A stretch of 46,232 nucleotides of DNA. Origin: a virus. A model generated the notes under the pieces. That model saw only the letters and a program-made list of their open reading frames with translations, made no database searches and had not been told where the DNA came from. Location: positions 1 to 46,232 of IMG/VR virus record IMGVR_UViG_3300035698_021104. One strand, 5' to 3'. This document shows, piece by piece, positions 10,541-37,111 of the stretch. The first letter of the stretch is position 1; each line of letters opens with the position of its first letter. The position numbers were made by a program, and so were the translations under genes.

Positions 10541-10635
10541 ATATAGTACGAAAATCCGTTATTATACATTGGAAGCCGTTAGGTTTCCTACTTCGGGTCC
10601 CGTCATTCTTACGAATAATGGATCAGCACCCGCGG

Positions 10636-10683
10636 CCCTATTTGGGTAACTCAATCCTTCCAGATTGAGTTATCCAAATAGGG
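10636..10683. terminator. Bidirectional hairpin terminator between convergent genes
   Basis: A 21-bp inverted repeat (arms 10636-10656 and 10663-10683, one G-U pair) with a 6-nt loop CTTCCA. It separates the rightward tail operon from the leftward gene ending at 10729. No long T tract follows, so a Rho-independent mechanism is likely but not certain. The rest of 10541-10728 holds only short imperfect hairpins and no ORF. Confidence 0.75.
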
Positions 10684-10728
10684 CTGTATCTTACCCCCCA
10701 GGAATACACCGGCTTAGAGGTCACCACC

Positions 10729-15823: not shown

Positions 15824-15852
15824 AGAATAACACACAAGAAAGCCTAAGTCAA
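15824..15852 (-). promoter_or_regulatory. Sigma70-like promoter for the minus-strand gene pair
   Basis: On the minus strand TTGACT (15852-15847), 17-bp spacer, TATTCT (15829-15824). Predicted transcript start near 15816, about 35 nt before ATG 15781. Its -35 box is 6 bp from the 27-bp dyad element at 15859. Confidence 0.55.
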
Positions 15853-15858
15853 TAGCTA

Positions 15859-15885
15859 AAGATCAAACCACGCGGTTTGATCTCA
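15859..15885 (-). repeat. 27-bp dyad element, copy 1
   Basis: Ten-bp arms AGATCAAACC and GGTTTGATCT around ACGC. The same 27 bases occur as the exact reverse complement at 36334-36360. This copy sits in the divergent intergenic region, upstream of the minus promoter and directly before the SD of the plus gene at 15897. It may be an operator/activator site or an RNA hairpin. The rest of 15782-15896 holds no ORF. Confidence 0.7.
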
Positions 15886-22015: not shown

Positions 22016-22145
22016 CGGCGGTTTGGCAACCACTATCGGTACAGTGATTGTAGTCGCTGCCTTTCTCAGTTGGACCGCAGGTAGTTTTCTGCCGGGTCTA
22101 ATAGGGGTGGCTGCAGTTTATGTAATCATGAAGTCGAACTCTTAA
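22002..22145 (+). CDS. 47-aa membrane protein
   Basis: ATG 22002 has AAAGGA 5 nt upstream. After a charged start (MKSRDGG) come two hydrophobic segments, TTIGTVIVVAAFLSWTAG and FLPGLIGVAAVYVIM, and a short polar end, so a two-span hairpin membrane protein is likely. The stop codon lies in the loop of a terminator hairpin. Function unknown; holin-like factors can look like this. Confidence 0.5.
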   Translation: MKSRDGGLATTIGTVIVVAAFLSWTAGSFLPGLIGVAAVYVIMKSNS

Positions 22146-22166
22146 TAGGAGTTCGGCTTTCTCTTA
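22131..22166 (+). terminator. Intrinsic terminator
   Basis: An 11-bp stem (22131-22141 with 22149-22159, one G-U pair), 7-nt loop, followed by the T-rich TCTCTT. It separates the short unit at 21.8-22.1 kb from the next genes. The SD of the next gene follows at once. Confidence 0.6.
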
Positions 22167-29731: not shown

Positions 29732-30580
29732 ATGCCCGCAAAACCCAAGAAGGGCGGGCGAGTACTAGAGCTGGTGAATCAATTCCCGAGAACTCCAGTT
29801 AACCAGCTAGCGTTTGACGCTACGATTGGAGTCATCACGCCGTGGTTACTACGAGATAGAGATCCAGATCGCGCACCACTCACCCATGCAGAAACATTGC
29901 TTAGGGCCTTTCAGATACGTGAAGCCACAATGCTGGCCGCTGTTGATGTAATCGAGAAGGACAAGAAGAAGCACGTAAGGTACGCCCCCGGTGTTGATCC
30001 AGACAAGTTGATCAAGCGCATTACCAGGACCTTGCGGTGTAAACCTTTTGGTGGAGCTATCAACGTCAACTACAAGTTCAGTTGTGGTATCCGGCAGGCT
30101 TGCGTCTATTGCCGGTATCGCCTCATCAAATCCCTGCTAGAGGGATGGGACCGGCCGGCTTTCGCTAAGCTCAACGAGTTGGTATCGGTTTCTAGCGTCA
30201 GTACTACTGATGATGTTCTCGAGCGGTTAATCGAGCACAGACATCAGATCATGCGTGATCTCCGGTGGAAGCATCGGTTACCTGGTAAGCCGCGGCTCAT
30301 CCTACAGACATTGAATCTACATCCCGACAAGAGAGAACTCAAGTACGAGAATCAAAAGTTAGTCTGGGATAATCGTTACCGGTGGACCTACACCATCATC
30401 AGTAAGTTTCCGTCTTTGGTTGAGAAGCCTTGGCGTACGGCGAACAAGTCTTTCGGGGAAGCTGTAGCTCAGACGCTGACGTTCACCATAGGTGGATTCA
30501 TTGCCCCGAGCGTACACATTCACGGATTATTCGAGTTCCCGAAGTTTCAATCCGTGAAAGTGCAACCCGTGAGGGTATAA
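29732..30580 (+). CDS. Hypothetical basic protein with Cys cluster
   Basis: A 282-aa protein with SD AAGGAG. Rich in Lys/Arg throughout. Near residue 115 is a cluster CGIRQACVYCRYR that might bind zinc or Fe-S; the end is hydrophobic then basic. No family recognised. Last gene before a strong hairpin at 30594. Confidence 0.55.
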   Translation: MPAKPKKGGRVLELVNQFPRTPVNQLAFDATIGVITPWLLRDRDPDRAPLTHAETLLRAFQIREATMLAAVDVIEKDKKKHVRYAPGVDPDKLIKRITRTLRCKPFGGAINVNYKFSCGIRQACVYCRYRLIKSLLEGWDRPAFAKLNELVSVSSVSTTDDVLERLIEHRHQIMRDLRWKHRLPGKPRLILQTLNLHPDKRELKYENQKLVWDNRYRWTYTIISKFPSLVEKPWRTANKSFGEAVAQTLTFTIGGFIAPSVHIHGLFEFPKFQSVKVQPVRV

Positions 30581-30593
30581 TCCTATTTCTCCT

Positions 30594-30633
30594 CTCAGTG
30601 GGGTCGGGATATTGTGATCCCGGCCCTGCTGAG
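30594..30633 (+). terminator. Hairpin terminator
   Basis: A 17-bp stem (30594-30610 with 30617-30633, three G-U pairs) and 6-nt loop ATTGTG, 14 nt after the previous stop and followed by TTCCTTCC. Likely ends the 22-30 kb transcript. Confidence 0.7.
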
Positions 30634-30676
30634 TTCCTTCCAGAAATGCAGAACCACCCCCAGGAGCAGTTCTAGT

Positions 30677-30713
30677 GTGTCTGGACCTGTCAGACACTGG
30701 GTATACCTGTCTG
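30677..30713. promoter_or_regulatory. Cluster of TGTCTG/CAGACA half-sites (operator-like)
   Basis: TGTCTG at 30678-30683, CAGACA at 30691-30696 and TGTCTG at 30708-30713. The middle element can pair with either neighbour. ACCTGTC is repeated at 30685 and 30705, exactly 20 bp apart. Could be an operator for a dimeric regulator or a pair of alternative RNA stems. Confidence 0.4.
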
Positions 30714-30779
30714 AACGCTCAGAAGGCTTCTGTGTGTGTGTAACGAGTATTTTGTTGTTCGTTCTTTTTCTTTACTCTT

Positions 30780-30943
30780 TGCGCGCACACTTGGTTGGGG
30801 TGCGCGCAGTACCGGAGGGCTTTCTCAAGAGAGAAAGGACTGTTACGTTTCCTCGTGGATCCGTAACTGTCCTTTCTACGTAAGTAGAAAGCCCATGTGT
30901 AACCGGAGCCGAAGGCTTCGGATTATACACAAGAAAGGACAAT
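30780..30943 (+). promoter_or_regulatory. Highly structured RNA leader with possible SD sequestration
   Basis: Contains a 9-bp GC stem (30780-30788 with 30800-30808), an outer stem (30817-30825 with 30886-30894), a long stem (30832-30847 with 30862-30877, 15 pairs and one mismatch) and a hairpin at 30896-30931. The segment GTCCTTTCT (30869-30877) can pair with AGAAAGGAC at 30832-30840 or with the identical nonamer at 30932-30940, which is the SD of the gene at 30944. Alternative hairpins CTTTCTC-AAGA-GAGAAAG and CTTTCTAC-GTAA-GTAGAAAG compete with the outer stem. This suggests a switch controlling translation (inference). The 30634-30779 part holds no ORF and a T-rich stretch. Confidence 0.55.
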
Positions 30944-31369
30944 ATGAATATTGTTGACCTTGCTGAAATAGCTCATCCTGACTGTTTAGCTCAATGTGAT
31001 GCAGGCAGCACGTCGAGAGAGGAATGTGTTCGCTTATGTCCATTCAAGTTCAATCCAGGTATTGGACCTGAGGATGCTTTAGGTCTTATGCCTATCGAAC
31101 TGTTGGATGAGTTAACCAAAGAACTTTCTAGGCAGAGGGAGAAGAATGAGCATTGGCCGATGAGCTGTAACATTTCTGAAGTCAGTGCCCGTAGTTCGGC
31201 AGTCGAGACTTTGTCGTCTGTCATGCGTCACGAAGGCGTACCTGAATGTAGAATGAACCTGTACGCTAAAGCTATGCTGTTCATCATAGCTGCTGCACAT
31301 ACGAAGGCGCAAGGAATTGGCGAGTACAACTATAATCGTAACCTCAAATGGGGCAATTGGGATGCCTGA
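30944..31369 (+). CDS. Hypothetical Cys-containing protein
   Basis: A 141-aa protein with SD AAAGGA 4 nt before ATG 30944, lying in the structured leader. The N-terminus has CLAQCDAG followed by EECVRLCPF (C-x3-C ... C-x3-C). The middle is helical, and the C-terminus is aromatic and polar (YNYNRNLKWGNWDA). No family recognised. First gene after the leader; the next gene overlaps its end. Confidence 0.55.
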   Translation: MNIVDLAEIAHPDCLAQCDAGSTSREECVRLCPFKFNPGIGPEDALGLMPIELLDELTKELSRQREKNEHWPMSCNISEVSARSSAVETLSSVMRHEGVPECRMNLYAKAMLFIIAAAHTKAQGIGEYNYNRNLKWGNWDA

Positions 31370-34187: not shown

Positions 34188-36336
34188 GCAGCTGACTATG
34201 CGGGACTTTGGTCCTATTGAGCAGCTGACTATAGATTTCACGCAAGGCACCAATGGTATTTTCGGTGAGAACGGTGCCGGCAAGTCTCACGTTGGCGACG
34301 CTATCCGGTGTCTGCTTACCGGTGATCTTCCTAAGACTAATGGTTGGTATCTGCGAGATTTCGGCAGGGGCCCGAAGAAGTTTGTCCTCGAAGGGCTCTT
34401 TGACTTCGGCGGTAATGACGTCGCCATCAAGCGTACGTTTACTGCAAAGAAGGGTGAGGCTGGCGATCCGGATGAAGGTGTTCCGCCTTCAGTGTCAGCC
34501 AGGGCTTCCCTCAAGACTGGAGGCTTTTCGTTATCCTCGGTGGCTGACGTTAACGACAAAGTCGTTGAGCTGCTCGGTGTCAGCAACAAGCGTAAGCTGG
34601 AAACAGCGTTCGTAGATCAGCACGAGACAGACTTGCTTCTCCGTGCGAAACCCGCGGAACTCAACAAGCTGCTGCAGGACAGGTCCGGCGCTCGCATTTG
34701 TGAGCAAGCTCGTACTGCAGCCTTATCCATGCGCGCTACAATGAATACGACCGATCGCAGTGAAGAGATAGCAACCGACTCGGCTGGACTGCTGGAGAAA
34801 GAGGAGGAGCTTAAGGTTGCCGCGAGCGAGCTGGAGCAGAAGGCAGAGGACATCAAGAAGATCGACGTCGACGCACTAAACCTAGTGGTCAAAACCTACG
34901 ACACGTTTGAAACTGTCGTTGCGCTGTTAGACGAAGTTAAGGATGAAGCCAAAGCGCTGGACGATACCCTCAAGTCGATGATCGTAACTCGATCAGAAGA
35001 CGCTAAGAAGACGCAGACGTTGTCTGTTGAGCGGGACAGTAAGAAAGACAGGTTCCAGATTGAGAGTCGAGCGCTCGGTCAAATGTCTGTGTTACAACAA
35101 CTCGCTGACGCCAGGGCCAGCAGTGAACGGGCGCTCGCCAAGATTGTGGATGAGCTAACCGTGATCACTGAGAGCCAACCACAACAGCCGGGTGTCGAAG
35201 AAGAAGAGGTGGCTAAGAAGGAGCAGATGCTCCAAACCGTTGAGGCGGAGTTCAGCGCTTTTGCCTCTCTTATTGCGTCGTACGAGAAAGATGGGACATG
35301 CCCGCTGTGCTTTGGTGTTCCTCAGGAAAGCAGAATCAACCACGCTAAGGATATCGCTGCGCAGCATACGCGCTACCTTGTCAGCGCTAACGAGATCGCG
35401 AAGCTTCGAGCGGCGTGGAACAAGTTCCATACGGATGTTGAGAACCGCATACGTCGAACAAAGGAGCTTGAGGGTCAATTAGCTGTGGTAGCTGAGGCGT
35501 TGGAAAAGCAGCCCCCAGTTGTAGCTCCGTCGTCGGAGTCTTCTGCTGTCAGCAAGAAGTTCATAGCAGAGTTCGAGCAATTAGAGAAGTTCATCGCAGA
35601 GCAGGCAATCTTAACTGCCAGGCACGAACAAAAGTACAGCAGTACCGTCGAACGAAGAGCTGAGCTGGATGTTGAGATCGAGAAACTCAAGGCCAAGTAT
35701 GTTGCGGCTCCCACCGAAGCTACCTACCTCTCGGCCAAGCAGACGCTCAACAACAGAACTGAGATGCGCGTAGCTGTTGCTGGGTTGTCTGAGCGGGTCA
35801 AGCAGTTATGCGATGATGTCGAAGAGCGGAAGGGATCGTTAGAGCGCCTGAAGGAAGAACAGGCGGCAGGCGACAAGATCCGCAGGGCTGGCGATATGCT
35901 GGACGTGATCATAGGTACGCTGCACCACACGGCAATCCCGGCTGACATCACGGCTGAGTATATGCGAGAGATCAACCGAAGGATGGCGGAATACTGCGAG
36001 CGGTTGAGTGTTCCGTTCACGCTGTTCTTGGACGAGAAGTTGATGATGTTCATGGCGCAGTTCGATGATCGAGCTCAGCCGGTGTTCTTGTTGTCTGGCG
36101 GGCAGAAGATTATCGCAGCGTGGGCTTTCCATTTGGCGATGGTCACCTACGGCCAGGATGGAACGCTCGGATTCTTGTACCTTGACGAGCCTACGGACTC
36201 GCTCAGCGATACGAATCGTGCGAACGTCACTTCAGCTGTTGAATTCCTCAATACGACGTTCGAGGGTCTGCAGCTTATTGTTGTGACGCACCATCCTAAG
36301 CTGGCTGGTGTTTTCTCGAACTCGCATAGGATATGA
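34177..36336 (+). CDS. sbcC: SbcC/Rad50-like SMC-type ATPase
   Basis: A 719-aa protein. Walker A GENGAGKS (30-37), two long coiled coils with a zinc hook CPLC (C375, C378) in the middle, ABC signature LSGGQ (639-643) and Walker B LYLDEP (D670 E671). Complete Rad50/SbcC layout, shorter than the E. coli protein and close to T4 gp46-type phage forms. Partner of the SbcD-like nuclease. Its TGA stop is part of the 27-bp dyad element. Confidence 0.88.
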   Translation: MWIKQLTMRDFGPIEQLTIDFTQGTNGIFGENGAGKSHVGDAIRCLLTGDLPKTNGWYLRDFGRGPKKFVLEGLFDFGGNDVAIKRTFTAKKGEAGDPDEGVPPSVSARASLKTGGFSLSSVADVNDKVVELLGVSNKRKLETAFVDQHETDLLLRAKPAELNKLLQDRSGARICEQARTAALSMRATMNTTDRSEEIATDSAGLLEKEEELKVAASELEQKAEDIKKIDVDALNLVVKTYDTFETVVALLDEVKDEAKALDDTLKSMIVTRSEDAKKTQTLSVERDSKKDRFQIESRALGQMSVLQQLADARASSERALAKIVDELTVITESQPQQPGVEEEEVAKKEQMLQTVEAEFSAFASLIASYEKDGTCPLCFGVPQESRINHAKDIAAQHTRYLVSANEIAKLRAAWNKFHTDVENRIRRTKELEGQLAVVAEALEKQPPVVAPSSESSAVSKKFIAEFEQLEKFIAEQAILTARHEQKYSSTVERRAELDVEIEKLKAKYVAAPTEATYLSAKQTLNNRTEMRVAVAGLSERVKQLCDDVEERKGSLERLKEEQAAGDKIRRAGDMLDVIIGTLHHTAIPADITAEYMREINRRMAEYCERLSVPFTLFLDEKLMMFMAQFDDRAQPVFLLSGGQKIIAAWAFHLAMVTYGQDGTLGFLYLDEPTDSLSDTNRANVTSAVEFLNTTFEGLQLIVVTHHPKLAGVFSNSHRI

Positions 36337-36360
36337 GATCAAACCGCGTGGTTTGATCTT
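36334..36360 (+). repeat. 27-bp dyad element, copy 2
   Basis: Exact reverse complement of the copy at 15859-15885. It begins with the sbcC stop codon and lies 52 bp upstream of the -35 box at 36413. Confidence 0.7.
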
Positions 36361-36363
36361 CAT

Positions 36364-36410
36364 GACTATTTCTGGGGGTCCGCCAACATGCAGGACCCCC
36401 AGAAATAGTC
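36364..36410 (+). terminator. Perfect 18-bp hairpin terminator
   Basis: Arms 36364-36381 and 36393-36410 pair perfectly; 11-nt loop. It ends the sbcCD transcript just before a new promoter. Confidence 0.75.
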
Positions 36411-36412
36411 GT

Positions 36413-36441
36413 TTGACTCTGGTTTTGACGCAGCGTAGAAT
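36413..36441 (+). promoter_or_regulatory. Sigma70-like promoter for the replication operon
   Basis: TTGACT (36413-36418), 17-bp spacer, TAGAAT (36436-36441). Predicted start near 36448, about 34 nt before ATG 36482. The strongest promoter match in the window. Confidence 0.7.
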
Positions 36442-36481
36442 GGGTAGCTCAAGCTGTCGGTAACGGCAAGGAGGAGCAATC

Positions 36482-37111
36482 ATGCCCATGATCGAGATAG
36501 ATATACAGCTGCGTTTCACCACGCCATCGCTTGGGGCAGCACGTAAGCCGCGCGATTCCGTGTTGTACCATCAGCGCTCTGGTGACCATGTCGTGTTTAT
36601 GGAAGGATGGCTTGTTACTGCTACGAGACGGGGGGCTCAGGCATTAGGGAAGTACTACGACCTGGTGTCAAAAGTACTATGGCAACCTGTCGTGGACGGT
36701 AACACCGCAATCTATAAACGGTACTTCGCCCCTCGAAGATACCGCAGGCACGAAGCCTTTCTGGCCGGCAGCTTGATCGGGCTACGCGCTATGATTCCGT
36801 CGGAACTTGGTATTGATGGATTCTGCGAGGTGTTGGAAGTAGTTGGCAAGTATTTTGGCATCAGCCCGTGGGGGCACGACGGATCTGAGAAAGGTTGGGG
36901 TAAGTTCATAGTAGAAGGAGTCGAACAACATCGTGGAAATCCTCGTGAGGAAGCACGGAGCGTTCCTGGAGATCAGTCCAACGGAGATAGCACTACCACT
37001 TCTGACGGACCACCTGATATTCACCAGGAAGAAGCCTCTCTACGGCCCGGAACGGGCGAAGCAACGCAGGATGATGAGTTACCAGGAGGAGCTGCTCTAC
37101 AAGTTGAGTGA
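36482..37111 (+). CDS. Hypothetical protein with disordered C-terminal tail
   Basis: A 209-aa protein with SD AAGGAGG. Residues 1-150 appear folded (beta-rich start IEIDIQLRFTTPS, then basic and helical). Residues 151-209 are polar, Gly/Asp/Gln-rich and look disordered; this part overlaps the helicase gene in another frame by 179 bp. Unknown function. First gene of the replication operon. Confidence 0.6.
   Translation: MPMIEIDIQLRFTTPSLGAARKPRDSVLYHQRSGDHVVFMEGWLVTATRRGAQALGKYYDLVSKVLWQPVVDGNTAIYKRYFAPRRYRRHEAFLAGSLIGLRAMIPSELGIDGFCEVLEVVGKYFGISPWGHDGSEKGWGKFIVEGVEQHRGNPREEARSVPGDQSNGDSTTTSDGPPDIHQEEASLRPGTGEATQDDELPGGAALQVE

What the first reader, a model, noticed from the sequence alone, without database searches (positions are those of the whole stretch)
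30677..30943. Structured leader with a nonamer that can pair with either an upstream strand or the downstream SD
AGAAAGGAC occurs twice (30832-30840 and 30932-30940, the second being the SD), and GTCCTTTCT at 30869-30877 can pair with either. At least five further stems, some mutually exclusive, lie in 270 nt. This is the architecture of a translational switch or a structured non-coding RNA, and no known riboswitch class is recognised.
Basis: partly seen in the sequence, partly recalled or inferred. Interest (0 to 1): 0.7.

Follow-up and report, generated by a model that had tools for sequence, protein, structure and literature searches.

The report
Hairpin-rich leader before phage replication genes
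A 363-base stretch that codes for no protein, lying just before the DNA-replication genes of a large bacterial virus, would fold into a string of strong RNA hairpins; the folding is real, but the proposed on/off switch for protein making is not supported by the energetics or by any related sequence found.

Summary
AGAAAGGAC is at 30832-30840 and at 30932-30940 (the SD of the 141-aa gene 30944-31369), and its complement is at 30869-30877. The region 30581-30943 is the largest non-coding gap found in this 46-kb virus contig and its most structured + strand stretch (fold z about -8.4). The switch reading is not supported. The 30832/30869 hairpin has predicted probability ~1, the SD:30868-30877 alternative ~0, and the alternative is about 14 kcal/mol worse. 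The start region is no more closed than in the phage's other genes (rank 20-24 of 36). A better predicted SD partner is a U-rich tract at 30739-30766, only modestly above chance. No homologue of the leader was found, so covariation could not be tested, although 28 records of related phages were searched. Most likely this is a transcription-unit boundary: a 3' hairpin of the upstream operon, then a hairpin-packed 5' leader of the SbcD-SbcC-helicase-polymerase operon. An origin of replication is the best rival: a codon-position-3 GC-skew change, the T-richest 35 bases of the contig and its only perfect DnaA box coincide here, but relatives do not show this consistently. No Rfam family matches. 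Low to moderate interest.

The parts
29732..30580 (+). Upstream gene (282 aa, unknown function), last gene of the upstream + strand operon
   Evidence: ORF, positive codon score; no Pfam match; one weak relative (37% over 76 aa) in one related phage record; AlphaFold model unusable, pLDDT 35
30554..30581 (+). Promoter-like site GTGAAA-16-TATAAT, overlapping the end of the upstream gene; candidate start of the leader transcript
   Evidence: 10 of 12 matches; not above chance (2 sites found, 4.7 expected); inference only
30594..30633 (+). Hairpin H1: 17 bp with 3 G-U pairs, 6-nt loop, starting 14 nt after the upstream stop codon; likely 3'-end hairpin of the upstream transcript
30677..30714 (+). 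Two mutually exclusive short stems (30677-30683/30691-30697 and 30690-30696/30708-30714)
   Evidence: sequence
30739..30766 (+). U-rich tract predicted to pair with the SD and start codon (30931-30956, p about 0.9); overlaps the T-richest 35-nt stretch of the contig
   Evidence: duplex -17.8 kcal/mol, reached by 37 of 2000 shuffles
30777..30811 (+). Hairpin H5 with arms TGCGCGCAC/GTGCGCGCA (30780-30788/30800-30808)
30817..30894 (+). Hairpin H6: outer stem 30817-30825/30886-30894, inner stem 30832-30847/30862-30877, which contains the first copy of the nonamer and its complement
   Evidence: predicted pair probability 0.998 or more
30896..30929 (+). Hairpin H7, ending two bases before the SD sequence; its 3' arm overlaps TTATACACA (30923-30931), the only perfect DnaA-box consensus in the window
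30932..30940 (+). SD sequence AGAAAGGAC, second copy of the nonamer
30935..30961 (+). Local hairpin around the start codon (-7.6 kcal/mol), the default SD partner when the U-rich tract is absent
   Evidence: 15 of 2000 shuffles as stable
30944..31369 (+). Downstream gene, 141 aa, Cys-rich N-terminus, no known relatives; first gene of the presumed operon that runs through SbcD, SbcC, helicase, DnaB-like, primase and DNA polymerase
   Evidence: codon score positive; no match in Pfam, PHROGs, phages, viral or genome contigs

Best explanation
The region is a transcription-unit boundary that works as RNA of the + strand. H1 (30594-30633) marks the 3' end of the upstream operon. The stretch from about 30640 to 30943 is the hairpin-packed 5' leader of the replication operon. 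H5, H6 and H7 fold locally and leave the ribosome-binding site at ordinary accessibility. Their likely job is mRNA end stability, processing or insulation, with at most modest tuning of translation through the U-rich tract that pairs with the SD and start codon. Shown: non-coding status, strong + strand folding, the pairings as predictions. Inferred: promoter position, termination at H1, and every functional role. The nonamer duplication is real, but at equilibrium it is inert as a switch.
For: Non-coding by codon usage between two coding genes. Best-folding + strand 300-nt window of the contig after GC correction, tied with 36301-36600; z -8.4 to -8.8. The + strand folds better than the - strand (-164 against -140 kcal/mol). 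Across the long intergenic hairpins of the contig, departures from Watson-Crick pairing are G-U rather than A-C by 8 to 1 in + orientation, which favours RNA of the + strand over a DNA cruciform. Comparable hairpins sit at other gene-block borders: 10633-10686, 22131-22159, 36362-36412. RBS accessibility is ordinary. The H6 inner hairpin has p about 1. Synteny with about 200-kb phages places it just before SbcD-SbcC-helicase-polymerase.
Against: No transcript data. H1 has no U-tract and the terminator scan does not call it. The promoter-like site is not above chance. The leader is not found in 28 related phage records by a single-sequence covariance model, so no conservation backs a function. 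Three origin-like signals also fall here.
Confidence: 0.5

Rival explanations
1. The region is (part of) an origin of replication: a T-rich, easily melted tract flanked by inverted repeats, directly upstream of the replication operon.
For: The best single GC-skew change point of the whole window is at 30700. GC skew at codon position 3 in + strand genes goes from -0.016 (11 genes just left) to +0.118 (13 genes right), p = 0.0026; best gene break 29.2-30.9 kb, permutation p = 0.0075. The T-richest 35-nt window in 46 kb is at 30745-30749 and its A+T ties the contig maximum. The only perfect TTATNCACA of the window is at 30923-30931. In two relatives the detrended skew minimum also lies between terminase and the SbcC/SbcD genes (G022 97 kb, G012 oriented 176 kb).
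Against: Two other relatives have the minimum elsewhere. Perfect DnaA boxes are absent from G012 and G001, so the single box is probably chance. No iterons. In 1-kb bins the skew stays positive on both sides, and differences in transcription could cause the shift. Hairpin G-U pairs favour RNA.
Confidence: 0.17
2. A translational switch: the 30869-30877 strand is exchanged between the 30832-30840 arm (SD free) and the SD (translation off).
For: A 10-nt perfect complement to the SD within the leader is rare (15 of 3000 shuffles) and unique among 31 starts tested. A strand could be freed by a ribosome, protein, antisense RNA or RNase.
Against: The off state is about 14 kcal/mol worse and has p ~0, also at all transcript lengths tried. 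No leader peptide across the first arm has coding-like codon usage. The start region is no more closed than in other genes. No homologue to test covariation.
Confidence: 0.08
3. The SD and start codon are masked by the U-rich tract 30739-30766 in long transcripts and freed in shorter ones, in the manner of the T4 gene e and I-TevI leaders.
For: Pairing p about 0.8-0.97 once the transcript passes the start codon; duplex energy reached by 37 of 2000 shuffles and about 1% of contig windows. Precedent: PMC3014915.
Against: Opening energy with the full leader (9.9 kcal/mol) is hardly higher than without it (8.7) and below the gene median in the same context. No promoter known between 30766 and 30930.
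Confidence: 0.13
4. A free-standing structured non-coding RNA made from this gap, acting in trans.
For: Length, strong fold, non-coding.
Against: No Rfam match; no clear promoter or intrinsic terminator bounding it; not found in relatives.
Confidence: 0.08

Closest known systems
T4 gene e / I-TevI type leaders with a structure-masked start (PMC3014915)
   Same: Phage mRNA leader in which a helix with an upstream strand covers SD and start codon
   Different: Here the masking partner is far upstream and encloses three hairpins, the start is not unusually closed, and no late promoter that would remove the upstream strand is known
Metastable SD-sequestering hairpins of type I toxin mRNAs, aapA3 (PMC6733600)
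   Same: Sequences that could pair alternately with the SD
   Different: The alternative strand is already locked in a far more stable local hairpin before the SD is made; no antisense RNA is known here
HK022 put antitermination RNA (PMC9378689)
   Same: Structured RNA at the head of a phage operon
   Different: No sequence or structure comparison with put was made and no downstream terminator is mapped; resemblance of setting only
Hairpin terminators and mRNA end structures at phage operon borders
   Same: Hairpins just after stop codons and between gene blocks, several in this contig
   Different: No U-tract after H1; five or more stems are packed into one gap instead of one

Membership tests
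Known structured RNA family (Rfam 15, riboswitches and ribozymes included) | Score at or above a curated covariance-model threshold | tested here: not met
   No match in the window at gathering scores; only chance-level matches with E up to 10
Translational switch of SD / anti-SD type | Two mutually exclusive conformations of comparable stability, one covering the SD | tested here: not met
   14 kcal/mol apart, alternative p ~0; equilibrium calculation only
Translational switch of SD / anti-SD type | Covariation of both pairings in homologues | not testable with these tools
   No homologous leader found
Translational switch of SD / anti-SD type | A signal (ligand, protein, temperature, stalled ribosome) changes expression | not testable with these tools
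   needs experiment
Intrinsic terminator (H1) | G+C-rich stem followed by a T-run | tested here: not met
   Strong stem, but only TTCCTTCC follows; not called by the scan
Origin of replication | Nucleotide-skew shift at the site | tested here: met
   Change point at 30700 and GC3 shift p = 0.0026; seen in the syntenic interval of only two of four relatives
Origin of replication | Cluster of initiator boxes or iterons | tested here: not met
   One DnaA-box consensus only, no iterons, boxes absent in G012 and G001
Structured mRNA leader at an operon border | Non-coding, folded in the coding-strand sense, between two same-strand gene blocks | tested here: met
Structured mRNA leader at an operon border | Present as a transcript 5' end | not testable with these tools
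   no expression data

The most novel reading that the evidence does not exclude
A new bistable phage leader RNA in which displacement of the 30832-30840 arm, by a protein, a trailing ribosome, an antisense RNA or RNase cleavage of H6, frees the 10-nt anti-SD and shuts off the first gene of the replication operon.
Probability: 0.06. Interest if true: 0.55.

Novelty: new member of a known kind. Interest (0 to 1): 0.27.

Why it matters
If it is only an operon-border leader, it adds one more structured phage UTR from an uncharacterised group of about 200-kb phages. If the skew shift reflects an origin, it would point to where replication of this group starts. If the switch were real, it would be a new way to gate a phage replication operon. 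None of the stronger readings is established here.

Tried and rejected
Homologues of the first gene, the gene upstream and the leader: none in viral contigs, phages, genome contigs (first gene only), or about 30 records of related phages reached through polymerase motifs and an alignment, apart from one weak relative of the upstream gene. A single-sequence covariance model of H6+H7 found only itself (and the opposite strand of the same place) in the window and nothing in 28 related records. An exact 16-mer match in another viral contig (L069) lies in a different context and is chance. The idea that the upstream gene is a HUH/Rep or transposase protein with its origin or guide RNA downstream was not supported: no Pfam match for the gene, only E = 0.095 to a transposase zinc domain for its weak relative; AlphaFold pLDDT 35. 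Intergenic ORFs as leader peptides: negative codon scores. Structured gaps in relatives: L005's was a mis-called coding region, and L004's hairpins look unrelated. Group I introns, ribozymes and riboswitches: no Rfam match. tRNA/tmRNA: none.

Full report
What the window is. It is a 46,232-base linear virus record with no named relative nearby. Its genes are colinear with those of about 200-kb phages in the viral contig collection: tail and structural genes, terminase, a VWA protein, SbcD, SbcC, a helicase, a DnaB-like protein and a family A DNA polymerase, at roughly 20-45% protein identity. No closer relative was found, so the leader cannot be compared with homologues.

The observation. The whole non-coding gap is 30581-30943. 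Codon usage is positive for the genes on both sides and negative for the ORFs inside the gap. The fold of 30581-30960 is -164 kcal/mol, z = -8.4, and the region is the most structured + strand stretch of the contig after correction for G+C, tied with 36301-36600. The SD being a perfect 10-nt complement of a leader strand is above chance (15 of 3000 shuffles; next best of 31 starts is 8 nt).

Is it a switch? The 30832-30877 hairpin is formed with probability about 1, from any of three assumed 5' ends. Forcing the 30868-30877 strand onto the SD costs 14 kcal/mol and has probability about 0. Growing the transcript in steps does not change this: the hairpin is complete by 30880, before the SD exists (an equilibrium calculation at each length, not a kinetic one). 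In the full leader the SD and start codon pair instead with a U-rich tract at 30739-30766, which is only modestly unusual (37 of 2000 shuffles). Without that tract, a local hairpin around the start codon takes over. The energy to open the start region is 8.7-9.9 kcal/mol, rank 20-24 of 36 genes, so the leader does not close the start in any special way.

RNA or DNA? The + strand folds better than its complement (-164 against -140 kcal/mol; z -8.8 against -7.1). When helices are extended treating G-U and A-C alike, the intergenic hairpins of this contig carry 8 G-U and 1 A-C juxtapositions in + orientation, and the single A-C lies in the proposed SD:nonamer helix. This favours RNA hairpins on the + strand. 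The numbers are small.

Border of transcription units. H1 starts 14 nt after the stop of the upstream gene; similar long hairpins stand between the convergent genes at 10.6 kb, before 22178 and after SbcC at 36.36 kb. None has a clear T-run. A perfect TATAAT lies at 30576, but promoter-like sites are not above chance. A boundary with a hairpin-rich leader is therefore the most economical account. Termination, promoter and function are inferred.

Origin as rival. A scan for one change point in GC skew puts it at 30700. At codon position 3 of + strand genes the skew moves from -0.016 to +0.118 across the gap, p = 0.0026. The gap holds the T-richest 35 nt of the contig and its only TTATNCACA. Of four relatives, two have their detrended skew minimum in the interval between terminase and the SbcC/SbcD genes and two do not; perfect DnaA boxes are absent from two, single in one and scattered in one. 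I keep the origin at 0.17.

Known families. No Rfam match. Phage precedents for SD-masking leaders (T4 gene e, I-TevI; PMC3014915), metastable SD-sequestering hairpins (PMC6733600) and operon-head antitermination RNA (PMC9378689) resemble it in part, but membership in none of them was shown here.

Limits. All pairings are energy-model predictions; several tests were tried on the same region and their p-values are not corrected; the contig is a fragment; the host and expression are unknown.

Noticed in passing
15859-15885 and 36334-36360: A 27-nt sequence, AAGATCAAACCACGCGGTTTGATCTCA, occurs twice, exactly and in opposite orientation, 20 kb apart; each copy is nearly palindromic (GATCAAACC-4-GGTTTGATC) and lies in or at the edge of an intergenic gap, once just before a start codon and once at the stop of SbcC. 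Operator-like or a hairpin pair.
   Followed up: partly
10633-10686: A 24-bp near-perfect hairpin between convergent genes, without a T-run.
   Followed up: partly
36362-36412: A 20-bp near-perfect hairpin after SbcC, before the next gene on the same strand.
   Followed up: no
L004 18530-18645: Two long palindromic hairpins (around CCCCCTATAGGGGG and CCCCCCTATAGGGGGG) in a 562-nt gap downstream of the polymerase in a related phage.
   Followed up: no
L014 1966-4447: Six tRNA genes upstream of the replication module in the closest relative, while the window itself has none.
   Followed up: no
15832-15842 and 30927-30937: ACACAAGAAAG is shared by two intergenic gaps, the second being at the SD of the leader gene.
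   Followed up: no
30575-30583 and 30920-30928: GTATAATCC and its reverse complement GGATTATAC stand near the two ends of the non-coding gap; about what chance would give.
   Followed up: no
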